This document shows, piece by piece, positions 4,615-32,106 of a DNA stretch of 64,000 bases (the stretch's first letter is position 1; every line of letters begins with the position of its first letter). The position numbers and the translations under genes were made by a program. The stretch lies in NCBI RefSeq assembly GCF_913060805.1, contig NZ_CAJXTC010000014.1, positions 61,954-125,953 of the forward strand, read 5' to 3'. The stretch is from an uncultured Draconibacterium sp. GTDB lineage: Bacteria; Bacteroidota; Bacteroidia; Bacteroidales; Prolixibacteraceae. Below the pieces are notes generated by a model. The model saw only the letters and a program-made list of their open reading frames with translations, was not told where the DNA came from and ran no database searches.

Positions 4615-6141
4615 ATGAAAGTTGACAGACGTGATTTTATTAAAACAAGTGGTATGTTTGCAGCGGGAAGTATGGTTTTACCTCCCTTTGTGCAATCGTG
4701 CCAAAACGTACAAATTTCAGCAGACGTGAAAAGTTATTTAGATCATTTTGAAGTGACTACCGAGATGTTGCAAAAAGTTATTGCAACAGCCATGAGCAAA
4801 GGCGGCGATTATGCCGACTTATTTTTCGAACACAAAATTACCAACAGCCTGGCGCTTGAAGACGGGAAAGTAAACCGCGCTTATTCCAACATCGATTTCG
4901 GAGTTGGCATTCGCGTGTTAAAAGGAGACCAAACCGGTTTTGCCTACTCCGAAAATATTGCGCTCGACGATATGCTGAATGCAGCAAAAATGGCCGCAAA
5001 CATTGCCAACAGCAGCTCTAATTTTAATGCGGCTGATTACAACGAAAAACTGCCCGCCAACTACTACAAAATTTCGAAAAAGTGGGAAGACGTTTCGGTA
5101 AAAGACAAAGTGCCTTTTGTACAAAAGGTAAACGATAAAATTTTCGGTCTCGACGAAAAGGTTATTAAAGTAAATGCCGGAATGAGCGACGAAAGCAGCT
5201 ACGTAATGTTTTATAACTCGGAAGGACGTTTAACTCACGATTACCGACCAATGATCAGCTTTTATGCGGTTTGCGTTATGCAGGACGGTGAGCAAATTGA
5301 GAATGCTTACTCGGCACGTTCGGTTCGCCGCGGTTTCGAATGGCTGACAGATGATTTGGTTGATGAGCTGGCCAACGAAGCAGTTGAAAAAACCAACCTG
5401 CTTTTTAAAGCCGGAAAACCAAAAGCCGGAGAAATGCCGGTAGTTCTAGGTGCCGGAGGTTCGGGAATTTTACTTCACGAAGCCATTGGCCATACTTTTG
5501 AGGCCGACTTCAACCGAAAAGGAACTTCTATTTTTAGCGACAAACTGAACAAAAAAGTTGCTGAGAATTTCATTAATATCATCGACGATGGTACGCTGCC
5601 AAACGACCGCGGTGCCATTAACATCGACGACGAAGGAAACGACGTACAAAAAACTTACCTGGTAAAAGACGGTATTTTGAACAGCTACCTTCACGACCGC
5701 ATCAGTGCCAAATATTATGGTGTTGAGCCAACGGGTAACGGACGTCGCGAATCGTTCCGCCACATGCCACTGCCACGTATGCGATCAACCTACATGGAAA
5801 ATGGTCCGCACACCACCGAAGAAATTTTTGCCGCAGTTGATTACGGCGTATATGTCGACAACTTCAGCAACGGTGAGGTTAAAATCGGTGCCGGCGACTT
5901 TACCTTCTTTGTAAAATCGGGTTACATTATCGAAAACGGAAAACTCACCACTCCAATTAAGGACATTAACATTGTTGGTAACGGACCCCAGGCTCTGGCA
6001 GATATTTCAATGGCTGCCAACGACTACAAAAACGACAGTGGCACCTGGACCTGTGGAAAAGACGGACAATCAGTTCCGGTAACACTTGGCCTGCCAACTG
6101 TTTTAGTGAAGAAAATGACCGTTGGAGGAACAAATGCATAG
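4615..6141 (+). CDS. tldD: TldD-family metalloprotease with a twin-arginine signal
   Basis: TldD/PmbA metalloproteases work as a heterodimer that trims unfolded peptides and matures modified peptides. The zinc motif HEAIGH is at residues 288-293, preceded by the glycine-rich VVLGAGGSGILL. The N-terminus (DRRDFIK, then a hydrophobic stretch to residue 27) is a typical Tat signal, unlike the cytoplasmic enterobacterial TldD; a Cys follows in VQSC, but the lipobox is poor. ATG at 4615 is chosen; an upstream in-frame TTG at 4588 would bury the Tat motif. The partner gene begins 34 bp downstream. An exported TldD beside a PmbA-like protein without an obvious signal is odd and leaves the site of action unclear. 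Confidence 0.9.
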   Translation: MKVDRRDFIKTSGMFAAGSMVLPPFVQSCQNVQISADVKSYLDHFEVTTEMLQKVIATAMSKGGDYADLFFEHKITNSLALEDGKVNRAYSNIDFGVGIRVLKGDQTGFAYSENIALDDMLNAAKMAANIANSSSNFNAADYNEKLPANYYKISKKWEDVSVKDKVPFVQKVNDKIFGLDEKVIKVNAGMSDESSYVMFYNSEGRLTHDYRPMISFYAVCVMQDGEQIENAYSARSVRRGFEWLTDDLVDELANEAVEKTNLLFKAGKPKAGEMPVVLGAGGSGILLHEAIGHTFEADFNRKGTSIFSDKLNKKVAENFINIIDDGTLPNDRGAINIDDEGNDVQKTYLVKDGILNSYLHDRISAKYYGVEPTGNGRRESFRHMPLPRMRSTYMENGPHTTEEIFAAVDYGVYVDNFSNGEVKIGAGDFTFFVKSGYIIENGKLTTPIKDINIVGNGPQALADISMAANDYKNDSGTWTCGKDGQSVPVTLGLPTVLVKKMTVGGTNA

Positions 6142-21269: not shown

Positions 21270-22016
21270 TTATTCCGTGTCGACGTTATTTTCGTCGGCG
21301 CTGTTGTCTTTTCTGCCATCGCGGGCAGCCAGCGTATCGTTATAACGTTTTATTTTCTGATTCATAACAACTATAAAGTTTTCAATTTCGGGTGTGGCCA
21401 TGCCAATTCTTACGTACGAATTTACCAGATCAATGATTTCGCGGTATAGCGGACTCATTTTCTCGCGAACAGCCTTTACATCGCCACTTGATTTATATCC
21501 TCTTTCTGTATCGCGTGTGTTTTGTAGCGATTTAAAATTTTCCTGCTGGCTTTTATACAAAGGCAGCCAGGTATTGAGCCGAATACGGGTTACATGTTCC
21601 GTATTTGGTGTTTTTTCCATGTCTTGAATAAGGTTGCGTGCTTCGCTCGATTCGCTGTCGAATGAACGTTTACGGAAATCGCCGTAAACATCGAAAATGC
21701 GGCGGATAATTTTAGCGCTTTCTACTTCTTCGGGTACCGGACTGTGCAAATGCGCATCTACCATCAAATCCATAGCACGCCAGGTTTTTCCACGTTCTTC
21801 GTCGGCAGCCTGAACTTTCTCGGTTAAAACGCTTCCGCGGTCAACACGCGTGGCTTCGTCCAGTTCGTTGTACACGACATTAAATCGGGTCATTAAACCG
21901 GTGGTTACTGTTGATTCGGGTAAAATGCCGGTAATGCCGGTTTTTAGGTCGGTAATAAGTTCGAAATACTCGCTGTTGCGTAAATAGGTTAGTGAAATAG
22001 AATTAACAAAATTCAT
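21270..22016 (-). CDS. Uncharacterised helical protein, DUF6261-like
   Basis: A 248-residue soluble protein, predicted mostly alpha-helical and strongly charged, with no signal peptide, membrane segment or catalytic motif that I recognise. Its opening (MNFVNSISLTYLRNSEYFEL) and overall length resemble the DUF6261 proteins common in Bacteroidota, often found beside mobile DNA; this assignment is from memory and moderate. The C-terminal 20 residues are acidic and probably disordered. It lies immediately upstream of the integron-like island, on the opposite strand from the recombinase, and has a strong terminator. No function can be assigned. Confidence 0.65.
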   Translation of the reverse strand: MNFVNSISLTYLRNSEYFELITDLKTGITGILPESTVTTGLMTRFNVVYNELDEATRVDRGSVLTEKVQAADEERGKTWRAMDLMVDAHLHSPVPEEVESAKIIRRIFDVYGDFRKRSFDSESSEARNLIQDMEKTPNTEHVTRIRLNTWLPLYKSQQENFKSLQNTRDTERGYKSSGDVKAVREKMSPLYREIIDLVNSYVRIGMATPEIENFIVVMNQKIKRYNDTLAARDGRKDNSADENNVDTE

Positions 22017-22333
22017 AGTAAAAAATTTAAGGTTTAAAATTAATATTGATGATTTTTATGATTCGAGGATTTATGTTTTACGATTGGATGTGTATTAGAT
22101 TGAGTAATAAAATTAAAACATATGTAAATAACTGTCAAGAATATAAAATATGTTTCACAGCAACTTACAGTCCTTACAAGGTATTGTATTTCGTATTCTT
22201 TGCATTGTTAGCAACTGTGCGAAAGCTACCTTCCCACCTGTTGGGTTCTTTTGTACCTGCTAAACGGGTTCTTGTTTTCAAAGGCAGATAAATTTTGCCC
22301 GATTTACCAACGATTATTTTCGACGAATCCTAC
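22017..22333. other. Divergent region upstream of the 42-bp array
   Basis: About 315 bp, very AT-rich to 22210, with no supported gene; it must carry the promoter of the DUF6261-like gene and probably that of the recombinase. The frame that becomes the recombinase is open from 22295. Confidence 0.4.
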
Positions 22334-22585
22334 GGGCTGCCTGATTTTATCAGTCACAGTAGCACAGCGGTTGCCGGCAGGCCGGAAAATACAATTCTGC
22401 TTTTCGTCACCATTTCCGGCAAGCCGGATTTCATTTCTCTGTTTGGCGTAAACTTTTCCGGGGCACCGGACAAGGCTTTTCTCCTGTGCGTGAACATTTC
22501 CGGGCTGCCGGATTTTATATTTCTTGTGTTCGGGAACATTTCCGGGCCGCCGGATTTTATTATTCTTGCGTGCGGGAATACTCTT
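22334..22585 (+). repeat. Six 42-bp tandem units, five centred on CCGG-N4-CCGG
   Basis: Units begin at 22334, 22376, 22418, 22460, 22502 and 22544, exactly 42 bp apart. Units 2-6 have the palindromic core CCGG-N4-CCGG; the first has a decayed version (GGGCTGCCTGA). Between the cores the sequence is TTT-rich and varied, often ending in GAACATTTCC. In the recombinase frame it would encode G-x-P-D-F-I repeats of 14 residues, but the minus strand is also open, so a DNA-level role (protein-binding array or hairpins) is at least as likely as coding. It lies directly upstream of the recombinase. Confidence 0.75.
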
Positions 22586-22672
22586 AATCAACAACTTACA
22601 CACATTATTGATTGTTTGCTTTTTAGCGAAAATTATGTTTATTTTAAGGGTAAAACCAAAAAACTGTACCCG

Positions 22673-23836
22673 TTGAACAAGCGCCCGCAAATAACGCTAA
22701 GGTTAGCCATACACCGGCAACAAAATATCGTAAGGATTGAATTTGCATACAACCGTGAATTAATGGATGTATTAAAACAAAATATGCCTGTTGTTTGGAG
22801 TGCTACCATGAAGTGCTGGTATTTGCCAATGCGCGATTTCGATTTGCATTATTTCTTCGAAACCTTTAAAAACCATGCATACATTAACTATGATGCGCTG
22901 AAAAAGGTGAATGATGAGCCACCGGAGAAAGAAGCTTCGAAACCTGTACGATACAGCTACCGAACAAGCACTAACCTGCCCGAAGGATACCTGGAAAAGC
23001 TTGAACAAAAACGTTACAGTGCCAGTACCATAAAGTCTTATGTGGCCTATTTTAAAGATTTTATCTATTATTTTCACGGGAAGGACATTGATAAGCTCAC
23101 AAAAAATGAAATTGATGCTTATATTCTTCACCTGATAAAAAAGCAGAAGATCTCTCCTTCGCAACAGAATCAACGGATTAATGCCATTAAATTCTATTAC
23201 GAGAAAGTATTAGATTTACCGAAACAGTATTATGATATTGAACGCCCCAGAAAAAGCTTTGACTTACCCAAAGTTTTGTCGGAACCGGAGATAATGCAAA
23301 TTATTGAAGCAAGTACCAACCTGAAGCATAAGACCATACTTGCTACCATTTATTCAGCGGGTTTGCGCCGAAGTGAGATAATAAACCTGCGAAAGGAAGA
23401 CGTAGATTTTAACAAAAACATTATTTTTATCAGAGGCGCAAAAGGTAAGAAAGACCGGATAACACTACTCTCTGAAACCAATGCGCATTTACTGAAGAAC
23501 TACATGGCCGAATACAGACCCAAATACTGGATGTTTGAAAGCCCTGATAAGAAAAAATACAATACATCCAGTATTTCAAAGGTGCTAAATAAGGCAGTTG
23601 CTATAGCTGGTTTAAATAAAAGAGTAACACCACATATGTTGCGGCATTCGTTTGCCACTCATTTACTGGAACAGGGAGTTGATATGCGTTATATACAAAA
23701 TTTATTAGGACATGAATCGACAAAAACCACAGAGATTTACACCCACGTAAGCAAAAGTTCTCTGCACAAAATAAAAAGTCCGTTAGACCGGATTTTCGAG
23801 GATAAAACAAATAATAACAACAAGTTACGCGAGTGA
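22673..23836 (+). CDS. Tyrosine recombinase of the integron-like island
   Basis: Catalyses site-specific strand exchange, here proposed to insert and excise the downstream cassettes. The core has all tyrosine-recombinase residues: Arg in AGLRRSE, Lys in GAKGKKDR, HMLRHSFATH (H-x-x-R), GHES and the nucleophile Tyr in EIYTHVS, ending KSPLDRIF as in XerC/IntI proteins. From KDR to LRH there are only about 66 residues, so the insertion of about 40 residues that marks IntI is absent. Before the SAM-like core-binding domain there is an extra module (about residues 1-95) with WSATMKCWYLP. No ATG lies near the likely start; TTG at 22673 gives 387 residues. The frame is open back to a TTG at 22295 through the 42-bp array, which would give 513. 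Confidence 0.85.
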   Translation: MNKRPQITLRLAIHRQQNIVRIEFAYNRELMDVLKQNMPVVWSATMKCWYLPMRDFDLHYFFETFKNHAYINYDALKKVNDEPPEKEASKPVRYSYRTSTNLPEGYLEKLEQKRYSASTIKSYVAYFKDFIYYFHGKDIDKLTKNEIDAYILHLIKKQKISPSQQNQRINAIKFYYEKVLDLPKQYYDIERPRKSFDLPKVLSEPEIMQIIEASTNLKHKTILATIYSAGLRRSEIINLRKEDVDFNKNIIFIRGAKGKKDRITLLSETNAHLLKNYMAEYRPKYWMFESPDKKKYNTSSISKVLNKAVAIAGLNKRVTPHMLRHSFATHLLEQGVDMRYIQNLLGHESTKTTEIYTHVSKSSLHKIKSPLDRIFEDKTNNNNKLRE

Positions 23837-23883
23837 CAACCAATAAAGTATATATTGCACTGCAACTAACACATACGTTAGGC
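23837..23883 (+). other. attI-like primary recombination site
   Basis: Directly after the recombinase stop. It ends in the core GTTAGGC (23877-23883), an exact match to the classical integron core GTTRRRY, with the proposed crossover between G23877 and T23878. Inside, TATATATTGCA-C-TGCAA gives a tiny hairpin and ACACATAC precedes the core, resembling the right arms of the attC-like sites (ACATACAA...GTT) in shortened form. It marks the start of cassette 1. Confidence 0.65.
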
Positions 23884-23921
23884 ACAATGGTGAGAACCCA
23901 AATTGTAACGAGATATTTTAA

Positions 23922-24365
23922 ATGAAAAGAAATAAAAAAGTTGAAAGGATATTTACAATTTCGATAATTATTTTGACAGTGATTGTTGGCATGAATCACC
24001 GAAAAAATAGGAAATCAGAAAAAGAAAATTTATTTCAAAATGGATTATTTACCATTGGAGAGGTTATTTACTATTCTTCTCCTAAATCACCGATAGCTGC
24101 TCCAAAAATTTCGAATACAGGAAAGCCAGCGGAAATAGAATTCTCAGTTAAAATAAACGGACAAAAATACATTTGCAAGTATGATGAATGGTCTGGAGAA
24201 ATTCCAAATGAAGGGATTGAGGTTGGAAATAAATATTTGGTACTATATCCAAAAAAATTTTCACCGAATGAGTGTAGGATGCAATTTGATTATCCAATAA
24301 AGGATAGTATCGATTTTAAAAAGTATATAGCGGAGTTTGAAAAGATAAGAAAAAAAGATGAATAG
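23922..24365 (+). CDS. Cassette 1 protein: membrane-anchored protein of unknown function
   Basis: A 147-residue protein with one N-terminal membrane segment (about 9-25, ERIFTISIIILTVIVGM) and a small, probably beta-rich C-terminal domain containing IEFSVKINGQKYICKYDE and GNKYLVLYPK. No known catalytic motif. It is the only gene in cassette 1 (23878-24515), 44 bp after the crossover point and 21 bp before the attC-like core. It is markedly AT-richer than flanking chromosomal genes, fitting separate origin. Orientation matches the recombinase. Function unknown. Confidence 0.7.
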   Translation: MKRNKKVERIFTISIIILTVIVGMNHRKNRKSEKENLFQNGLFTIGEVIYYSSPKSPIAAPKISNTGKPAEIEFSVKINGQKYICKYDEWSGEIPNEGIEVGNKYLVLYPKKFSPNECRMQFDYPIKDSIDFKKYIAEFEKIRKKDE

Positions 24366-24386
24366 AAATAGCGAAATAAAACCACA

Positions 24387-24524
24387 GTGCCTAACATATT
24401 GTAATATGGCAGGCGGGGGTTTCAGCGGTCTGACAAGTCAGACCACTCGCTCACTTTTCTGCGGGTCTGACAGGATTTCTCTTCGAAATCCCGCCCGGCC
24501 ACATACAAGTGACCGTTGTGTGGC
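24387..24524 (+). repeat. attC-like site 1
   Basis: Left core GTGCCTAAC (24387-24395) is the exact reverse complement of GTTAGGCAC that opens cassette 1. Right core is GTTGTGTGGC (24515-24524), crossover after G24515. The arms pair imperfectly (TTGTAATATGGC against GCCACATACAA, GGCGGG against CCCGCC). Two inner hairpins: GGTCTGAC-AA-GTCAGACC (24427-24444) and GGATTTC/GAAATCC (24473-24491). Length about 138 bp. Confidence 0.8.
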
Positions 24525-24561
24525 ATTTAAAAAGACACAGTTTCAAGAGAATAGAAAATAA

Positions 24562-25563
24562 ATGAAAAAAATAGGAATAGCCTTATTATTAATTTTATCT
24601 GTACAGATTACTTATTCACAGGTTGAGAATAAAGATTATTTTAAATTTAATACAGATACTATTGATTTAAGTTCAAATGAAAAAGTACTAAATCAAAAAG
24701 AGTTTATACTAAACTGTATGGATTACATTTTGGATAATAAGTCAAGTCATATATCCATTGCACACTCAAATTGTTTTAAAATCATTTTAAAACTTAATGA
24801 AAATAAGGACTATAATGTGTATAACCTTGATGCTGATCCGCTAGAACTGATAAAAGGTGGAAATATGGCATATCAGGTTGTTTATTGGGCAGGATTAACT
24901 AAACTTCGACTTGAAAATCCCCAATTGATAGAAAATGATTCTTTACTTGCATTGGCTTCTATTGAATTATTTGTTGACTATTATTCAAAACCTGAAAATA
25001 ATGTTCATTTATCAAAAGAGCGTAAACTTGTCGCTAATTTAAAAACAGAAAATGAACTTGGAGAATATATTCATAATCTAATAATTGAAACAACCTTAAG
25101 GAGAAGCAAACAAAAACCAACAAAAGAGCTTCCTCAAAAAGAATTAGTAGATAAATACAGAGAAAGACTTGAAAAAATACCTGATAGTTTAGGATATGAA
25201 CTTTTCTATTATAGATACGCTAATGGTAATTTAAAAATGTTGGCTATCGGAAAAAAGGTTAAAGTAGAAAAAAGCATAGCAATTGCATATTTGGATAGCG
25301 CACTCTTTTTTCATAAAAATTCTATTCCCAAAGTAATTTCGTATGTTGATTCTATTGGCAGACCAACTGGTTGGAAGAAATTCAACAAACAAGGAGAATT
25401 AATAGAAATAGCAGATTTTGAAATATACAATACGGAACTAAAAGCTCCAGAGTTCCTGATAAAATACTTTGAGAATGGAAAACAGACAAAAGAAGCAACA
25501 TACGTTTATTACACTTCAAAAAAGAAAAAGTTGATTAGAGAAACTGTTCATGGAGATGAATAA
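24562..25563 (+). CDS. Cassette 2 protein: secreted protein of unknown function
   Basis: A 333-residue protein with a clear signal peptide (MKKIGIALLLILSVQITYS, cleavage near SQ). The mature part is helical and charged, with no family motif I recognise; near residue 270 GRPTGWKKFNKQGELIE has the look of a MORN/toxin-antitoxin-like YwqK repeat, but only once. It fills cassette 2 (24516-25703), starting 46 bp after the crossover. Very AT-rich. No function can be assigned; export to periplasm or surface is the only firm inference. Confidence 0.75.
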   Translation: MKKIGIALLLILSVQITYSQVENKDYFKFNTDTIDLSSNEKVLNQKEFILNCMDYILDNKSSHISIAHSNCFKIILKLNENKDYNVYNLDADPLELIKGGNMAYQVVYWAGLTKLRLENPQLIENDSLLALASIELFVDYYSKPENNVHLSKERKLVANLKTENELGEYIHNLIIETTLRRSKQKPTKELPQKELVDKYRERLEKIPDSLGYELFYYRYANGNLKMLAIGKKVKVEKSIAIAYLDSALFFHKNSIPKVISYVDSIGRPTGWKKFNKQGELIEIADFEIYNTELKAPEFLIKYFENGKQTKEATYVYYTSKKKKLIRETVHGDE

Positions 25564-25572
25564 TGGAAAAAC

Positions 25573-25712
25573 GCCACACAACATTTTGTATATTGCATAG
25601 CGGTTTCTGTGTGTATGCGTAGCCCGGATTCCCGTCTGATTGTCCTAGTCCGTACCGGACAGACAATCACCCGCAATCCGCTACGACAACATACAATTTA
25701 CCGTTATAGGGT
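25573..25712 (+). repeat. attC-like site 2 (divergent interior)
   Basis: Left core GCCACACAAC (25573-25582) is the exact reverse complement of GTTGTGTGGC opening cassette 2. Right core GTTATAGGGT at 25703-25712. Outer arms pair (TTGTATATTGC against ACAACATACAA); CGTAGC..GGATT pairs with AATCCGCTACG; TGATTGTC pairs with GACAATCA near the tip. The interior is unrelated in sequence to sites 1, 3 and 4 but has the same length (140 bp) and plan. Confidence 0.78.
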
Positions 25713-25733
25713 ATTTTAAAAAGCTACAGGATA

Positions 25734-26216
25734 ATGAACTTTAGAATAATATTAGTTGGGTTGGGGATTTTATTTGGCATTCAAACGCTTTTTGGACAGC
25801 CAACTTTTATTAAAGGAAAAATATTAGATTACGAAACAAATGAACCAATCGAGGCAATAACAATACTTGAAAAATATCCATTAAACGGAGTAATAACAGA
25901 TTCTAAAGGAAATTTTGATTTTAATATTAAAGGAGAAACAAAAGAAATAGAAATTAAATACATAGGATACTACGATATTGAACTGATAAATATTCCAATT
26001 GAAAGAGATACCATTGATTTGGGAGAACTCAAAATGGTTCGAAATTATTCTCTATACATTCATGTTGAAATGGCTCCAGATATAAAACCAGATAATAGGA
26101 AAGATAAGATATTACGAAAGGAAGTATGCAATAAATATCGACTTGAAATATCGGATAAAAACCTAATTCCAGTTTTCGATGACCGCAAAATTATATTTGA
26201 TTTCAATAAATATTAA
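25734..26216 (+). CDS. Cassette 3 protein: exported carboxypeptidase-regulatory-like domain protein
   Basis: A 160-residue protein. Residues 1-21 form a signal peptide (LGILFGIQTLFG). The next about 80 residues match the CarboxypepD_reg-like beta-sandwich common in Bacteroidota: IKGKILDYETNEPIEAITI, GVITDSKGNFDF and IKYIGYYDIEL. The last 50 residues are charged and unassigned. Such domains usually begin TonB-dependent receptors; here it stands alone, so a binding role is a guess. It is the only gene of cassette 3 (25704-26359), 30 bp after the crossover. Confidence 0.75.
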   Translation: MNFRIILVGLGILFGIQTLFGQPTFIKGKILDYETNEPIEAITILEKYPLNGVITDSKGNFDFNIKGETKEIEIKYIGYYDIELINIPIERDTIDLGELKMVRNYSLYIHVEMAPDIKPDNRKDKILRKEVCNKYRLEISDKNLIPVFDDRKIIFDFNKY

Positions 26217-26229
26217 ATGAATAAAAAAC

Positions 26230-26360
26230 ACCCTATAACAAATTGTAATATGGCAGGCGGGGGTTTTAGCGGTCTGACAAGTCAGACCTTCTGCTCACTT
26301 TCCTGCGGGTCTGACAGGATTTCTTTTCGAAATCCCGCCCGACCACATACAAGTGACCGT
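26230..26360 (+). repeat. attC-like site 3, left part, interrupted by the IS
   Basis: Left core ACCCTATAAC (26230-26239) is the exact reverse complement of GTTATAGGGT opening cassette 3. The interior is nearly identical to site 1, with GGTCTGAC/GTCAGACC and GGATTTC/GAAATCC hairpins. The right core is split: it ends CCGT at 26360, and resumes after the IS at 28049 as CCGTTAGCGGT. Removing the IS and one CCGT restores ...GACCGTTAGCGGT. Confidence 0.78.
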
Positions 26361-28048
26361 CAGACTGTCTAAAAACCTAACCTCATTTTGTTAAAAACTA
26401 AAACACATACTAACACTACTGAAAAACAATCCTTTGTAACTTCAGGCATGAAGTTTATACAAGGACAAAACAGAGACCAAATCTACCTTTTTCCAGTTTC
26501 ACTAAATGATGCTGTTGATGCCGAAAACGAGGTGCGCCTAATCGATGTTTTTGTTGATAGCCTGGAACTGGAGGAGTTTGGATTTAAAACCCGTTTTATT
26601 GAAAATGGCAGACCAGCGTACCACCCTTCCGATTTATTGAAACTATTCATTTATGGATATTTGAACCAGTTACGTTCATCCCGAAAACTGGAAAAGGAAT
26701 GCAAGCGAAACATTGAAGTAATGTGGCTGCTAAAAAGCCTCCAGCCCGACCATAATACTATCTCTAATTTCAGACGAGATAACCCGAAAGCCATAAAAAA
26801 AGTATTCCGTGAAACCGTTAAAATTGCAAAGCACTTTAACCTGATTGGTGGTACTCTGATTGCTGGAGACAGTACAAAGCTCCGTGCGCAGAACAGCAAG
26901 AAAAACAACTTTAATCAAAAGAAGATAGACCGCCACCTGGAATACATCGAAAACAAACTGTCTGAATATGAAAAGGCATTGGCTGAGAGCGATGGCGACA
27001 AAGACGAGATTAATAAAGAGATAGACAAACAAAACGAGCGCAAAGACGGGTACAAAAAACTGGAGAAGCAGCTAAAGGAATCGGGACAGGCGCAAATATC
27101 AACCTCTGACCCTGATAGCCGACATCAAATTACCCGTAATAATATTACCGAGGTAGCTTACTCTGCACAAACTACCGTTGATGCTAAAAACTACATCCCG
27201 ATTGATTATAAAATAACCAATGCCAACGATAAAAGGGCGATGGGAAACATGCTGCGTAGAGCAAAAACTATTCTACGTCATAACAACTTTACTGCACTTT
27301 ACGACAAAGGTTATCATACGGGCAGGGAACTGGCTATTGTCGATGAACTTAATATAAATACTCTGGTTGCAATTCCTCCATTTTCAGGGGCTTCTCATGC
27401 ACCTGACCTTAACTACGATGTAGAACATTTTGACTATAATCCTGAAACCGACACCTACATTTGTCCGCAAGGAAATACACTGAGAACCACAGGTTATTGG
27501 CATGTTGCGAAAAATCCCAATGGGCAGATAGCTTATCGGTTCAGAAACTATACCACTCCAAAATGTAAAAAGTGTGAAGTACGCCCACTATGTACAAAAT
27601 CGGCAGCAAATGGGAAACAGGTCAGACGGAGCGAGTTCGCAACAAATATTGAAAACAACAAAAAGCGAATATTAGGCAGCGGAAAGTTATACAAACGCAG
27701 GCAGGCTATAGTTGAACATCCTTTTGGAACGATAAAACGACAATGGGGATTTAACTACATAATCACAAAGCATGGAATGCAAAGAGCCAGTTCCGACTTT
27801 GGTTTTACAATGGTAGCTTATAATTTAAAACGACTTGTAAATTGTATTGGATTAAATGAGTTGAAAAAATACCTGGAAAGTACCAGCCAGTTATTTTGGT
27901 TGAATATTGCCCTATTAAAGTCATTTTTAAGCTGTTTCCCTATCTTTAAGCAACGATTAATTGAAGAAACCGAAAATGCACTTTTGAACCTGAATTTTAT
28001 AAAACAAAACTATATAACCGCAACGCAACGGAGTTTTTAGACAGACTG
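26361..28048 (+). mobile_element. IS1182-family insertion sequence
   Basis: 1688 bp bounded by inverted repeats CAGACTGTCTAAAAAC (left, 26361-26376) and GTTTTTAGACAGACTG (right, 28033-28048), 15 of 16 matching. It is flanked by a CCGT direct duplication (26357-26360 and 28049-28052). It carries one intact transposase. The target is the crossover core of attC-like site 3. Confidence 0.9.
26448..28040 (+). CDS. IS1182-family transposase
   Basis: DDE transposase of about 530 residues. It opens MKFIQGQNRDQIYLFPVSL followed by the DUF772-type N-terminal domain (FVDSLELEEFGF, YHPSDLLKLFIYGYLN). Catalytic region: GDSTKLRAQNS (first Asp), LYDKGYHTGRE (second Asp), and VEHPFGTIKRQWGF (Glu). A CxxC-type cluster (TPKCKKCEVRPLC) precedes the final part. 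The frame extends to a TTG at 26388, but ATG at 26448 matches the usual family start. Intact, with no frameshift, so the element may still be active. Confidence 0.92.
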   Translation: MKFIQGQNRDQIYLFPVSLNDAVDAENEVRLIDVFVDSLELEEFGFKTRFIENGRPAYHPSDLLKLFIYGYLNQLRSSRKLEKECKRNIEVMWLLKSLQPDHNTISNFRRDNPKAIKKVFRETVKIAKHFNLIGGTLIAGDSTKLRAQNSKKNNFNQKKIDRHLEYIENKLSEYEKALAESDGDKDEINKEIDKQNERKDGYKKLEKQLKESGQAQISTSDPDSRHQITRNNITEVAYSAQTTVDAKNYIPIDYKITNANDKRAMGNMLRRAKTILRHNNFTALYDKGYHTGRELAIVDELNINTLVAIPPFSGASHAPDLNYDVEHFDYNPETDTYICPQGNTLRTTGYWHVAKNPNGQIAYRFRNYTTPKCKKCEVRPLCTKSAANGKQVRRSEFATNIENNKKRILGSGKLYKRRQAIVEHPFGTIKRQWGFNYIITKHGMQRASSDFGFTMVAYNLKRLVNCIGLNELKKYLESTSQLFWLNIALLKSFLSCFPIFKQRLIEETENALLNLNFIKQNYITATQRSF

Positions 28049-28081
28049 CCGTTAGCGGTAAGTTTAAAACGAAGAAAGACA

Positions 28082-28378
28082 ATGAGCTTAACAGGAAAAA
28101 CAATTCGAATAATTGTAAGTGAACCTTGGGATTGGACAGAAAATCTTTTTGGAAAAGTTATTTCTGACCGAGGTGGAAAAAGCTTATTAGTCAAATTAAC
28201 AAAACCAATTAAAGGCAAGAAACTGACCAGTGATTTAATCAAACTTGAAACAAGATATGAGAACGAAAAATTCAAATCGCTGGAGCAATATTATTCTGTG
28301 AATATTGGTGGTGCTTTAGTGAAAGAAGGAAGCGATGAATTTGATTATATAATAATAGGAACTGTAACTCTTGATTAA
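28082..28378 (+). CDS. Cassette 4, first gene: small protein of unknown function
   Basis: A 98-residue cytoplasmic protein, probably beta-rich (IRIIVSEPWDWTENLFGKVI, LLVKLTKPIKGKKL, YYSVNIGGALV), with no signal, membrane segment or motif that I recognise. It begins 30 bp after the restored crossover of site 3 (28051/28052) and ends 2 bp before the next start, so both genes of cassette 4 are translationally coupled. AT-rich like the other cargo. Function unknown. Confidence 0.65.
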   Translation: MSLTGKTIRIIVSEPWDWTENLFGKVISDRGGKSLLVKLTKPIKGKKLTSDLIKLETRYENEKFKSLEQYYSVNIGGALVKEGSDEFDYIIIGTVTLD

Positions 28379-28380
28379 GT

Positions 28381-29010
28381 ATGCTAATAGAAAAGAAACA
28401 TATTTGGTATGCGAGTTATGGCTCAAATCTTCTAGAAGAACGATTCCTGTGTTACATTTTGGGAGGTCAGCCAAAAGGAGCAAAAAGTATTACTCCTGGT
28501 TGCTCGGACAAATCATTACCTCTAAAAAATAAGAAGATTCTAATTAATAGTGAATTATATTTCGCAAAGGAATCTAAAACATGGTCAAAAGGTGGCGTAG
28601 CATTTATAAAAACCCAATTTGACAAATTGCAAAAAACTTATGGTAGAATGTATTTAATAAGTGAAGAGCAATTTGTCGAAGTAGTTAAGCAGGAAATAAA
28701 TCTAAAAGAAAAACTAGTAATAGATTTTAAATCAATTGCAGAGAGAGGAAGCATGATTGTTAAAGAAAATTCGTGGTATGGGAATGTTATATTCTTAGGC
28801 ATGGATGGAGAATTTCCAATATTTACTTTTACGTTTCAAGACAACATACAAAAGTTTAATAAACCAAGCCCTGAATATTTAAAAACAATAATTAACGGAT
28901 TAAAAGAGACATACGATTTCAAGAATGATGAAATATCGGACTATCTGTTGAGTAAAAATGGAATATCAGGGAATTACTCTATCAATGAACTTAAAAATTT
29001 AATGAAATGA
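28381..29010 (+). CDS. Cassette 4, second gene: gamma-glutamylcyclotransferase-fold-like protein
   Basis: A 209-residue cytoplasmic protein. Residues 9-16 (IWYASYGSNLL) match the YGSN loop that opens the gamma-glutamyl cyclotransferase (GGCT/AIG2) fold, and KTYGRMYLISEEQF (about 90) fits a following strand. The catalytic Glu of GGCT enzymes is not securely located, so activity on glutathione-like peptides is uncertain. It is the second gene of cassette 4; two genes in one cassette is less usual than one. It ends 11 bp before the left core of site 4. Confidence 0.65.
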   Translation: MLIEKKHIWYASYGSNLLEERFLCYILGGQPKGAKSITPGCSDKSLPLKNKKILINSELYFAKESKTWSKGGVAFIKTQFDKLQKTYGRMYLISEEQFVEVVKQEINLKEKLVIDFKSIAERGSMIVKENSWYGNVIFLGMDGEFPIFTFTFQDNIQKFNKPSPEYLKTIINGLKETYDFKNDEISDYLLSKNGISGNYSINELKNLMK

Positions 29011-29020
29011 ATAAAAACCA

Positions 29021-29130
29021 ATCGCTAACAAATTGTAATATGGCAGGCGGGGGTTTTAGCGGTCTGACAAGTCAGACCTTGCGCCCACTCTCCTGCGGGT
29101 CTGACACTCCCGATTACGTACAAGCAACAA
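29021..29130 (+). repeat. attC-like site 4, truncated end of the array
   Basis: Left core ATCGCTAAC (29021-29029) is the reverse complement of GTTAGCGGT opening cassette 4 except for one G-T position. The first inner hairpin GGTCTGAC/GTCAGACC is intact, but the second (GGATTTC/GAAATCC) is deleted, and the right arm reads TACGTACAAGCAACAATTAAC in place of ACATACAAGTGACCGTT, so the right crossover G is lost. It abuts the next chromosomal gene. Confidence 0.7.
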
Positions 29131-32106
29131 TTAACAATGAATCAAAACACGTCGGTCGCGCCCATTCATTAAAATAGTGAGTGGCTTATCAAACTGCACA
29201 TGTTTTATAAATTCGGTTTCGCGAAGCACCTGCTGTTTTTGCAAAGCCTCCATTTTTAGTTTTGTATTGCGCGAATTATGCGGCACCGAAAAATAGCCCA
29301 CATTCATTGATGTAACGTTGTGGAAAAAGTGCGAACCCAGCGATGCATCCAACGGGAAATCGGGCAAGCCCATTTCAACAATAATCTTGGCTTTCGAGAT
29401 GTGCGCCCACAACACCGGAATTCCGGTATATGGGTCGCGCGAGCCCCAACGCCCCGGACCAATAAGAATATACGAGCGCCCCTCTTTTTCAAACCAATCA
29501 TTTAATTTACTGATTTCCTGCGCCATTTGGCGGGTCTTCATTTTATCGAACTTCTCCGGATCGACATAAACCACATCGTAAATATCTTCAATTTTGCCAT
29601 TACCCATTCCGTGCTCGGCATACATAAACACTTTGTCCTCGTCCACCATCTCAATATCCACTTCTACCTGCTCCTCGGTACGGATAAGCGGTTTTATCTG
29701 CAATAAATAAAGCGTTGGTTTGCCGTTTTCTGCCGGCTCAAGATCTAACGAATATTCAATTTCAACCGGCGAGCCCATGGCTTCCTTAAACAGTTTTAGC
29801 AACAACTGCAGCACATCGGCAAGCGGCAAATGATCGTATTTTAATATATTGGCAAAATCAATCACTTTGGGGCCGGGCCCCTGTATTCCCGGTATCAGAT
29901 CATCATTTTCGATTAAATATGTTGATGCCGAATGTTCCAGCGTTCCATCTTTTTCGGCTTCTTTTATGCGGTATTTTTTTATCGCGGCATCTTCGCCGTC
30001 GCTCGCTAAATCGAAATCAGGATTTGAAAGATCGATGGCATAAAACTGCTTCTGCGTATCGCGCAACTGATCTTTTAACGACGAAGCATTAAGGGTTGGA
30101 TATTTCGGACTAAAGCGGAATGCATTCTCGCCACCAACCACATACATACCGAGTCCAACGGCAGCTACTGAAAAACCATCTTCGGGTTCCATGTACGCAA
30201 TCGGGTAATAATTGTACGACTGCGCCACCCCCGAAAGCGTGGGGTAATATTTACCGTTGTACTCGTGGCCAATCACTTCCTGAATGACCACTGCCATTTT
30301 CTCCTCCTCGATTTTGTAGTTTACCGCATCGAAATACGCCTGTGCCGACTCGGTAAAAATACTGGAATAAACCAGTTTTATGGCCATTTCAAGGTGTTGG
30401 TAACGCACCTCCAAATCGGCATTATTATTCGGGATGAGGTAAGTGGCATAAACCCCCGAAAACGGTTGCAGCAACGAATCCTCGAACAATCCCGACGAGC
30501 GAACTGCCAGCGGCCTTTTTATCTTTTTCAGGTATTCCATCAGCCTCTTCCTGATCTTATCGTCGAACTCCGACTCGAGGAAATGTTTCCGAATGGCGTT
30601 ATAATCGTTAAACGAATAAATATCGTCGTACAGGTTGTTGGTCTCGATAAACTTATCAAACTCCAGCGCACCGATAATCGACGTTGAAGGAATGCGGATG
30701 TTCATTTCAGGGATCAGCTTCGAGAAGTCGATGTTCTCGATAATATTGCAGATAAAAGCGATTCCTCTCCCCTTACCTCCCAGCGACCCTTTTGCCATTC
30801 GCACTATAAACCGGCTCGACGACAAAAACTCCGGGTCGAAGTTTACAATGGTTCCGCGCAAGCGTTCGAAACGTATTTTCTTAAAACTATCGAGGCAGAA
30901 TTGCCGCAGCTCTTCGGGTGAATCAAAATCCGACATCTGGATCGGCATCAACAACTCAGCAAGATTGATCTCGCCACGCGCCATTAGCCAGGTCGAAAAC
31001 GAGTTTCTACTTCCGTGATATTGCAACGATTCTTCGGGAATATCTCTGAATTTCTCCTGAAACTCCACCAGGTTTTTTGCCTGCGCAATGGGCAAACCGT
31101 CCATGCCTTTAAAAACAAAGTTTCCGAATCCCAATCGCCGATACAGGAAATTGAAAATATCCATCGACAGGCTCTCCGAATTTTTATTGATGAAATCGGC
31201 TCCCACCTCTTTTGCCCGCTGTGCATTAGAGATATCGTGCGATTGCAAAAGCAAGGGAATAGGAAATTTTCGTGTGGTTTGCGTAAACTTCAGCAGCTCG
31301 ATACCGGCATCTTCGTCTTCCACACCATTTCGTTCAAATTTCACGTCGGAAATTACACACAGCATGTAACGTCGGTAGCTGTTTATAAATTTCACCGCCT
31401 CCTCGTAGTTGTCAGCCAAAATTACTTTTGGCCGCGCCCGCATCCGTAAAATCTTGTGCAACTCATCTGCGGCATCTTCGTTCACCAAAAACTGTGTTTG
31501 GGTCATTACCGTGGTGTAAAGCATTGGCAGGTACCGCGAATAATATTGAATACTGTCTTCCACCAGCAAAATTATCCGAACGCTACCATTCTGCGTATCG
31601 CGGGCCACATTGCTTTTGTCCTCGATGTATTTAATCATGGCCATAAAAACATTCGAGTTACCGTTCCACACAAAAATGCGGTCGATAAAGTCGAGTTTTC
31701 GGCGCTCGGTTTGGAAGAAACGCAGGTCGGCATTGTTATTCACCAACAACAACAAAGGTGCTTTCGGACGTAAATTACGGATGGCACGGGCGGTTTCAAC
31801 GGGCGTGTGTTTGTCCATACCGGCCATTACAATTATCAAATCAAAATCGCGATGTTCCAGTATCAATTGGGCTTCTTCCTGTGTGTGCACACTGGTAAAA
31901 CGCGGCGCTGCATAGAGGTTTAACTGCAGGTATTCGCCAAAAATCTTATCGCTAAACTGCCCCTCGCGAACAATGGAATACGAGTCGTAAAGCGTTGCTA
32001 CCAGCAGCACTTCTTTTACTTTGGTGGGCATTAATTCCTGGAAAATATCGCGGTCGTTTTTGCGCTTTTTATAGATGGTGGATAGAGATATATTGTCGAT
32101 GTCCAT
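29131..32106 (-). CDS. PEP/pyruvate-binding domain protein with N-terminal receiver-like domains
   Basis: A 991-residue cytoplasmic protein. Two receiver-like alpha/beta regions come first (about 30-165, with FDLIIVMAGMDKHTP, and about 178-320, with IILLVEDS and CVISDVKF). From about 430 there is a PPDK/PEP-synthase type nucleotide-binding domain: MAKGSLGGKGRGIAFI, RPLAVRSSGLFEDS and FSGVYATYL, then VVIQEVIG and QIKPLIR. The phosphohistidine swivel and the PEP-binding barrel of a full PEP synthase are not evident, so it is not PpsA itself. Likely an ATP-dependent phosphotransfer or signalling protein of a Bacteroidota family; exact role unknown. Confidence 0.75.
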   Translation of the reverse strand: MDIDNISLSTIYKKRKNDRDIFQELMPTKVKEVLLVATLYDSYSIVREGQFSDKIFGEYLQLNLYAAPRFTSVHTQEEAQLILEHRDFDLIIVMAGMDKHTPVETARAIRNLRPKAPLLLLVNNNADLRFFQTERRKLDFIDRIFVWNGNSNVFMAMIKYIEDKSNVARDTQNGSVRIILLVEDSIQYYSRYLPMLYTTVMTQTQFLVNEDAADELHKILRMRARPKVILADNYEEAVKFINSYRRYMLCVISDVKFERNGVEDEDAGIELLKFTQTTRKFPIPLLLQSHDISNAQRAKEVGADFINKNSESLSMDIFNFLYRRLGFGNFVFKGMDGLPIAQAKNLVEFQEKFRDIPEESLQYHGSRNSFSTWLMARGEINLAELLMPIQMSDFDSPEELRQFCLDSFKKIRFERLRGTIVNFDPEFLSSSRFIVRMAKGSLGGKGRGIAFICNIIENIDFSKLIPEMNIRIPSTSIIGALEFDKFIETNNLYDDIYSFNDYNAIRKHFLESEFDDKIRKRLMEYLKKIKRPLAVRSSGLFEDSLLQPFSGVYATYLIPNNNADLEVRYQHLEMAIKLVYSSIFTESAQAYFDAVNYKIEEEKMAVVIQEVIGHEYNGKYYPTLSGVAQSYNYYPIAYMEPEDGFSVAAVGLGMYVVGGENAFRFSPKYPTLNASSLKDQLRDTQKQFYAIDLSNPDFDLASDGEDAAIKKYRIKEAEKDGTLEHSASTYLIENDDLIPGIQGPGPKVIDFANILKYDHLPLADVLQLLLKLFKEAMGSPVEIEYSLDLEPAENGKPTLYLLQIKPLIRTEEQVEVDIEMVDEDKVFMYAEHGMGNGKIEDIYDVVYVDPEKFDKMKTRQMAQEISKLNDWFEKEGRSYILIGPGRWGSRDPYTGIPVLWAHISKAKIIVEMGLPDFPLDASLGSHFFHNVTSMNVGYFSVPHNSRNTKLKMEALQKQQVLRETEFIKHVQFDKPLTILMNGRDRRVLIHC

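What the first reader, a model, noticed from the sequence alone, without database searches (positions are those of the whole stretch)
22334..29130. Integron-like cassette island with a non-IntI recombinase in a Bacteroidota chromosome
Seen: a tyrosine recombinase, a short attI-like site with core GTTAGGC, and four same-strand cassettes (23878-24515, 24516-25703, 25704-26359, 28052-about 29130) separated by about 138 bp folded sites. Established: integrons insert circular cassettes by crossover at G^TT, making cassette-specific complementary cores. Inference: this is a working or recently working integron analogue, based on a XerC/D-like enzyme rather than IntI, with the recombinase gene in the same direction as the cassettes. 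I do not know whether it has been described.
Basis: partly seen in the sequence, partly recalled or inferred. Interest (0 to 1): 0.95.

Follow-up and report, generated by a model that had tools for sequence, protein, structure and literature searches.

The report
Integron run by another recombinase
This bacterial chromosome carries a row of gene cassettes bounded by DNA sites predicted to fold into hairpins, next to a recombinase that falls outside the integron integrases it was compared with; the enzyme likely captures and shuffles the cassettes, and since the same arrangement recurs in many related genomes it would be a largely overlooked route of gene exchange.

Summary
Window 22673-29137 has a tyrosine recombinase, an attI-like site, four same-strand cassettes and attC-like hairpins; each cassette's start core complements its own end core (9, 10, 10, 7 nt). 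In related loci, sites lie downstream of the recombinase on its strand (89 downstream, 1 upstream), consecutive sites share 8-nt cassette-specific cores in 80 of 106 pairs (1.9% when mispaired), and the bottom strand folds better in 149 of 166 sites, as in classical integrons. One pair of related species shares the platform but almost no cassette; one cassette (98.5% identical) lies at different array positions in two species. The recombinase lacks the stretch where IntI carries its I2 helix and falls outside a fully supported IntI clade, yet groups with IntI against five Xer proteins. Its extra N-terminal domain weakly resembles HARP/XPB domains. I read it as an integron run by a non-IntI recombinase that likely reads the folded site without I2. 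No activity was tested. No listed paper describes it (ten searches, capped lists); a 2026 Riemerella paper reports attC-like homology-free integration without naming an enzyme.

The parts
22673..23836 (+). tyrosine recombinase, 387 aa, TTG start; catalytic R, K, H-x-x-R, H, Y motifs present (Y356; residue roles recalled)
22673..22912 (+). extra N-terminal domain (~80 aa), HARP/XPB-like by weak matches
23850..23886 (+). attI-like site, core GTT at 23877-23879
23878..24515 (+). cassette 1, ORF 23922-24365 (147 aa, no Pfam family)
24388..24522 (+). attC1
24516..25703 (+). cassette 2, ORF 24562-25563 (333 aa, no Pfam family)
25575..25710 (+). attC2
25704..26359 (+). cassette 3, ORF 25734-26216 (160 aa, CarbopepD_reg_2 domain)
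26230..26364 (+). attC3, split at its crossover by the IS
26361..28048 (+). IS1182-family insertion sequence, transposase ORF 26388-28040, 4-bp duplication CCGT
28052..29130 (+). cassette 4, ORFs 28082-28378 (98 aa) and 28381-29010 (209 aa), no Pfam family; 3' boundary inferred because its attC is degenerate
29022..29137 (+). degenerate attC4 (13 bits, E 0.12)

Best explanation
The locus has the anatomy of an integron, but its recombinase is not IntI: that neighbouring recombinase likely inserts and excises the cassettes at G^TT. Shown by calls: cassette-specific complementary cores, a covarying outer hairpin with almost no G-U pairs, better predicted folding of the bottom strand, tight linkage of arrays to this recombinase family, and different cassettes on one shared platform in two related species. 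Inferred: a cassette circle presents its attC bottom strand as a hairpin; the recombinase binds it, helped in many members by the N-terminal domain, which would do part of the work that the I2 helix does in IntI; one strand is exchanged with double-stranded attI beside the gene; replication resolves the junction.
For: Cores: attI chosen by its upstream sequence alone (leave-one-out) has its 9-nt complement downstream in 29 of 46 loci, against 3.2% of 2060 swapped pairs; consecutive attCs match over 8 nt in 80 of 106, against 1.9% of 11,130 mispaired. Structure: 13-pair outer helix, 88.8% of 454 cells paired against 66.3% shuffled and 29.5-37% slid; covariation score 0.532 against 0.160 (0 of 500 shuffles), hardly any G-U. 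Strand: bottom strand more stable in 149 of 166 sites. Linkage: 166 sites in 52 loci, no locus with both strands; in the 80 related loci 89 sites downstream of the recombinase in 273 kb, 1 upstream in 647 kb, 62 of the 89 not in training. Distribution: of 99 genomes of the phylum, 34 of 38 with the recombinase (E<=1e-65) carry sites, 19 of 61 others do. IntI does not explain them: of 24 genomes of the window's class (its own included) 17 carry sites, none of the 17 has IntI over cut-off, and the one class member with IntI has no site. Exchange. Of 117 intervals the longest ORF (60 aa or more) runs with the array in 99, against it in 4, none in 14.
Against: No recombination was observed. In the window the last attC is degenerate and attC3 is cut by an IS, so this copy may be idle. 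In 17 of 46 loci the chosen attI had no exact core match; in some a different GTT had been picked (L022, L041 and L043 do have a match), but five are gut Bacteroidota (L085, L086, L090, L091, L097) whose recombinases may do something else. 4 of 38 recombinase-bearing genomes had no site, and 12 of 32 genomes of other classes with neither this recombinase nor IntI had at least one. The N-terminal match to HARP is weak in every test, and a short recombinase type with arrays lacks that domain.
Confidence: 0.86

Rival explanations
1. A conventional IntI elsewhere in the cell works these sites in trans, and the adjacent recombinase is a bystander.
For: IntI over cut-off occurs in 37 of 99 sampled genomes of the phylum. 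Arrays without a nearby integrase (CALINs) are known for classical integrons (passages).
Against: The window's genome has no IntI over cut-off. In its class, none of 17 site-bearing genomes has one. In other classes IntI without this recombinase goes with sites in 6 of 22 genomes, this recombinase in 18 of 21 (14 of these 21 also have IntI). The place of the aadA1 attC of plasmid R100 scores at chance with the model (7.1 bits, E 0.84).
Confidence: 0.05
2. Host XerC/XerD act on dif-like sites flanking genes, and the arrays are passive.
For: The recombinase and XerC/D are one superfamily; resistance modules flanked by Xer sites are reported in Acinetobacter (abstract in the listing).
Against: The sites are mostly ~125-nt hairpins with cassette-specific cores, unlike dif sites (size of dif recalled); they track one extra recombinase lineage, from which the five Xer rows separate at 100/98; the genome also has a separate XerC/D-like gene on C8 that groups with E. 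coli XerC/D.
Confidence: 0.04
3. The repeats are transcribed elements (terminators or structured 3' UTRs) spread by duplication, not recombination sites.
For: They lie at gene 3' ends on one strand and fold.
Against: Rfam finds nothing in 22000-30000; helix pairs change on both sides with almost no G-U, which points to pairing in DNA; cores tie one site's end to the next site's start, which terminators would not do; a cassette occurs as a unit at two array positions in two species.
Confidence: 0.03
4. An integron-type system indeed, but the window's copy is a fossil and no longer recombines (compatible with the main reading for the family).
For: IS in attC3, degenerate attC4, only four cassettes; the site is empty in a close relative (flanks about 140 bp apart).
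Against: Recombinase frame and catalytic motifs intact; attI, attC1 and attC2 intact; a second recombinase with a clean array lies on contig C65 of the same genome.
Confidence: 0.35

Closest known systems
IntI-type integrons (mobile class 1 and sedentary chromosomal)
   Same: attI beside the recombinase, one-way cassette arrays, cassette-specific GTT/AAC cores, hairpin sites that fold better on the bottom strand, asymmetric unpaired spacer, cassettes of about 0.4-2.3 kb
   Different: recombinase lacks the I2 stretch and falls outside the IntI clade; extra N-terminal domain; gene co-directional with the array (divergent in a related short type); core is GTTR with other letters following (GTTRRRY in 8 of 80 cores); the attC model does not recognise the one class 1 attC tested
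Archaeal XerA / bacterial XerC, XerD
   Same: core fold and catalytic residues; passes NCBI model NF040815 (recomb_XerA_Arch, 228.2 against 220)
   Different: tied to cassette arrays; groups with IntI rather than with the five Xer rows; N-terminal domain
attC-like 140-bp 3' UTR of aph(3')-IVb in Riemerella anatipestifer (PMC13148043, 2026; one section and passages read)
   Same: a Bacteroidota species; the gene enters the chromosome with 27 bp before and 140 bp after it, without flanking homology, and the 140 bp folds like attC
   Different: no recombinase is named in what I read; I had no sequence of that site, so identity with this system is inference
HARP (PF07443) and XPB N-terminal domains
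   Same: top-ranked but non-significant matches of the N-terminal domain in fold and profile comparison
   Different: here fused to a recombinase, apparently in 0-3 copies (by eye); function untested

Membership tests
Integron in the IntI sense | integrase with the IntI-specific additional domain (I2) | tested here: not met
   2a3v residues 181-241 correspond to ~20 residues here; K-to-H spacing 64-69 in 28 rows against 107 in 4 of 6 IntI rows (the other two read 71 because my motif caught a later match) and 100-106 in the 4 of 12 further IntI rows where the motif was found; TIGR02249 214.6 bits, cut-off 265, in two pieces
Integron in the IntI sense | integrase inside the IntI clade | tested here: not met
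   16 IntI rows form a 100/100 clade without it
Integron (working definition) | primary site attI next to the recombinase with G^TT core | tested here: met
   by anatomy, not assay:
Integron (working definition) | attC sites that fold, with AAC/GTT ends and a conserved outer helix | tested here: met
Integron (working definition) | bottom strand is the better-folding strand | tested here: met
   149 of 166 sites, 1 tie; prediction only
Integron (working definition) | core boxes GTTRRRY/RYYYAAC | tested here: not met
   GTTR in 80 of 80 verified cores, GTTRRRY in 8 of 80; the canonical consensus is recalled
Integron (working definition) | variable same-strand cassettes | tested here: met
Integron (working definition) | recombinase-dependent attC x attI recombination | not testable with these tools
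   needs an assay
NF040815 recomb_XerA_Arch | score over the curated cut-off | tested here: met
   228.2 against 220; the model's own name reads 'site-specific tyrosine recombinase/integron integrase'
HARP domain PF07443 | score over Pfam's gathering score (25 bits) | tested here: inconclusive
   window protein: no match; 6 of 59 members match at E<=1, best E 5.8e-5, its bits not printed; the two members with printed bits have 20 and 12.4
HARP/XPB fold | significant structural match | tested here: inconclusive

The most novel reading that the evidence does not exclude
Integrons exist in two branches, and this is the one without IntI: a Bacteroidota-wide cassette-capture system whose recombinases read single-stranded attC hairpins without the I2 helix, many by means of HARP-like modules, and which represents the grade of enzymes out of which IntI with its I2 helix arose.
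Probability: 0.4. Interest if true: 0.96.

Novelty: new variant of a known kind. Interest (0 to 1): 0.9.

Why it matters
A survey with IntI and attC models added one complete integron in Bacteroidetes (Salinibacter) to those of Chlorobi and Ignavibacteriae (passages of PMC9024848). The I2 helix is described as necessary for cassette capture and not found in any other protein, and intermediates in the origin of IntI are described as lacking (passages of PMC7790495). If the reading holds, many genomes of a phylum have integrons that searches built on IntI would miss (53 of 99 sampled genomes carry the sites; IntI itself is over cut-off in 37 of the 99 but in 1 of 24 of the window's class); the origin of IntI becomes testable with living relatives that lack I2; and the unexplained homology-free uptake of genes in Riemerella gets a candidate mechanism. 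Cassettes in the window's own genome include a Drt4/Drt6-type defence reverse transcriptase and a sulfatase.

Tried and rejected
Rfam: no match in 22000-30000. HARP membership: not claimed; 4o66 is absent from the 50 rows shown by VIA-align. Phage link: 1 of 50,697 phage records, partial match, at E<=1e-40, not pursued. PF22823, printed for most of the listed homologues, was not named by any search. A strict attC pattern modelled on the window's genus found nothing in the 80 loci and one likely false match at window 48822; replaced by core walking (longest exact chain 12 cassettes in L099, up to 5 in 920 shuffles, but most single loci do not exceed their own shuffles) and a covariance model. 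Whether IntI is nested in or sister to this family is unresolved: holding HARP+SHORT together costs 10.2 log units, p-AU 0.228; an earlier tree kept them apart from IntI at 55/65. For one search I dropped three near-identical IntI rows (P0171, P0218, P0207), and 8 of 12 new IntI rows went in untrimmed because my motif missed them. The E<=1e-65 recombinase cut was set after seeing a gap; at the preset 1e-50 the counts are 36 of 44 against 17 of 55. From the N-terminal alignment I left out L053, L066 (stops) and L087 (near copy).
Full report
Observation. The window holds, on the + strand, a tyrosine recombinase (22673-23836), a short attI-like site (core GTT 23877), and four cassettes, the first three ending in hairpin sites of about 125 nt. 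Every cassette begins with a core that is the complement of the core at its own end: 9, 10, 10 and 7 nt (its printout for cassette 3 is shifted by one base, the sequence shows the 10-nt match). An IS1182-family element with a 4-bp duplication CCGT sits in attC3 at the crossover, and attC4 is degenerate (13 bits, E 0.12; no better than shuffles on folding).

Not chance. In the 44 of 80 related loci with at least 700 bp after the recombinase, 9-mers beginning GTT have their complement within 5 kb in 39 of 202 cases, against 681 of 13,042 for other 9-mers. With attI chosen by its upstream sequence alone, leave-one-out (the profile was learned on 31 loci with a core match), the 9-nt complement is present in 29 of 46 loci (these 44, the window and contig C65), against 3.2% of 2060 swapped pairs. 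The 80 loci are the best of 527 confirmed relatives among 590 stretches, a capped list.

The sites as a family. From 35 sites (8 from the window's genome, 27 from relatives, length class ~125 nt chosen by me) RNAalifold gives a 13-pair outer helix, 10 pairs with compensatory change. Counting pairs: 88.8% of 454 cells pair, against 66.3% in shuffles and 29.5-37% slid; covariation score 0.532 against 0.160, 0 of 500 shuffles; the count of pairs with a change on both sides (10) is reached by 33 of 500 shuffles and that of pair types by 429, so the signal lies in how often pairs change together. Nearly all changes are on both sides with almost no G-U, as expected for pairing in DNA. The AAC/GTT ends and the helix are separated by an asymmetric unpaired stretch (3 nt and about 6 nt), resembling the central spacer of attC (resemblance recalled). 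The bottom strand folds better than the top in 149 of 166 sites, one tie.

Linkage. Covariance model R1 over the 80 loci gives 92 matches at E<=0.1, all on the recombinase's strand. At E<=0.01 (overlap removed) there are 166 sites in 52 loci, no locus with both strands; in the 80 loci 89 lie downstream in 273 kb and 1 upstream in 647 kb, 62 of the 89 not in training. Consecutive sites carry matching 8-nt cores in 67 of 103 (strict parse; 1.5% shuffled) or 80 of 106 (any AAC/GTT near the ends, same rule for controls, 1.9%). Of 117 intervals the longest ORF of 60 aa or more runs with the array in 99, against it in 4, none in 14; median size of interval plus site 966 bp.

Distribution and who runs it. 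Of 99 sampled, 53 have sites at E<=1e-5, the window's genome 15. Recombinase matches at E<=1e-65 occur in 38, of which 34 have sites; 19 of the other 61 do (Fisher 7e-9). IntI is over cut-off in 37 of 99, but in only 1 of the 24 genomes of the window's class, and that one has no site; 17 of these 24 have sites, 16 of them with the non-IntI recombinase. In the 75 genomes of other classes sites occur in 18 of 21 with this recombinase (14 of the 21 also have IntI), 6 of 22 with IntI only, 12 of 32 with neither. The window's genome has no IntI over cut-off. A plasmid of Chryseobacterium carries the recombinase with four sites after it.

Two layouts. Recombinases with the N-terminal domain (about 370-390 aa, some longer), as far as examined, lie upstream of the array in the same direction. 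A short type (about 280 aa, no N-terminal domain) lies divergently from its array in 5 of the 6 examined (G046, G038, G054, G066, G065; the sixth, G005, is co-directional), as classical intI does. G046 has such an array and no IntI over cut-off.

Exchange. Two genus relatives (G105, G132) share recombinase (85%) and 2.6 kb of upstream DNA (88%), but in the first 13 kb of their arrays (matches of 150 bp or more) only one 629-bp stretch at 73.6%, once in G132 and twice in G105. A less close pair (G101, G107: upstream 76%, recombinase 62%) shares nothing there, but G107's contig ends early. G110 and G132 share one cassette, 98.5% over 1 kb including the attC before it, with its own core GTTAACGCC/GGCGTTAAC, 8.4 and 4.3 kb into the arrays, next to different neighbours; in G132 the DNA right after its end core is not an attC. 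The window's closest recombinase relative (G122, 85%) shares none of its cassettes at this threshold, only a stretch over the IS at 76%. The window's site is empty in G105 (flanks about 140 bp apart). In three of the seven regions fetched from six relatives (L205, L206, L208) that site holds attC-bearing DNA, while the recombinase matches of those genomes lie elsewhere (ORFs read only for L205).

Cassette contents. Of 98 ORFs scanned, Pfam matches are scattered, no family in more than 4. In the window's own genome one cassette (L021 6973-8991) encodes a Drt4/Drt6-type defence reverse transcriptase between two sites and one on C65 a sulfatase.

Literature. Ten full-text searches, seven on integrons, two on Riemerella, one on HARP, listed no paper that describes the system; the lists were capped and preprints are not held, so one may exist. 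Seen: passages of PMC9024848, PMC9668308, PMC8138268, PMC7790495, PMC2426708, PMC8618304; one section and passages of PMC13148043. Several of these list Bacteroidota or Bacteroidetes/Chlorobi among integron carriers, in the IntI sense. PMC13148043 reports that aph(3')-IVb enters the R. anatipestifer chromosome with 27 bp before and 140 bp after it, without homology, the 140 bp folding like attC, mechanism not elucidated. That this is the same system is my inference. NCBI already names several of these proteins 'site-specific tyrosine recombinase/integron integrase', the name of the general model NF040815, so the words exist in databases without the system.

Verdict. An integron by anatomy and history, not a member of the IntI family by two tested features. 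Mechanism by analogy; activity untested; this copy possibly idle.

Noticed in passing
window 22446-22578: Imperfect 42-bp tandem repeats (2.4-2.6 copies) upstream of the recombinase start; the frame stays open through them, but the homologues aligned begin after them.
   Followed up: partly
G000:C65 (L018), recombinase 4920-6068 on the - strand: A second recombinase (41% identical) in the same genome with its own attI and two complete attCs; one cassette encodes a sulfatase.
   Followed up: yes
loci, e.g. L027-L036: 36 of 80 relatives' contigs end within 700 bp after the recombinase, perhaps because repeated sites break assemblies.
   Followed up: no
window 29131 (3' end of the 991-aa gene); L205, L206, L208: The same intergenic spot holds attC-bearing DNA in relatives whose recombinase lies elsewhere; it may be a secondary target or an old platform.
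   Followed up: partly
recombinases in L147 (G034), L089, L149 (G098): Two or three apparent copies of the N-terminal WS...CW module in tandem, seen by eye.
   Followed up: no
Acinetobacter plasmids, H10 to H33: A TnpF-like tyrosine recombinase 50% identical to the core over 234 residues, matching without the N-terminal domain.
   Followed up: no
L022: A contig filed under a Rhodobacteraceae MAG carries this system with flavobacterial-looking attCs; probably a binning error.
   Followed up: no
L050, L053, L055, L070, L088; L022, L041, L060, L082: A second attC size class of about 190 nt with an AAATTTTTAAATTTGG-type inner arm, and a third of about 50-70 nt.
   Followed up: no
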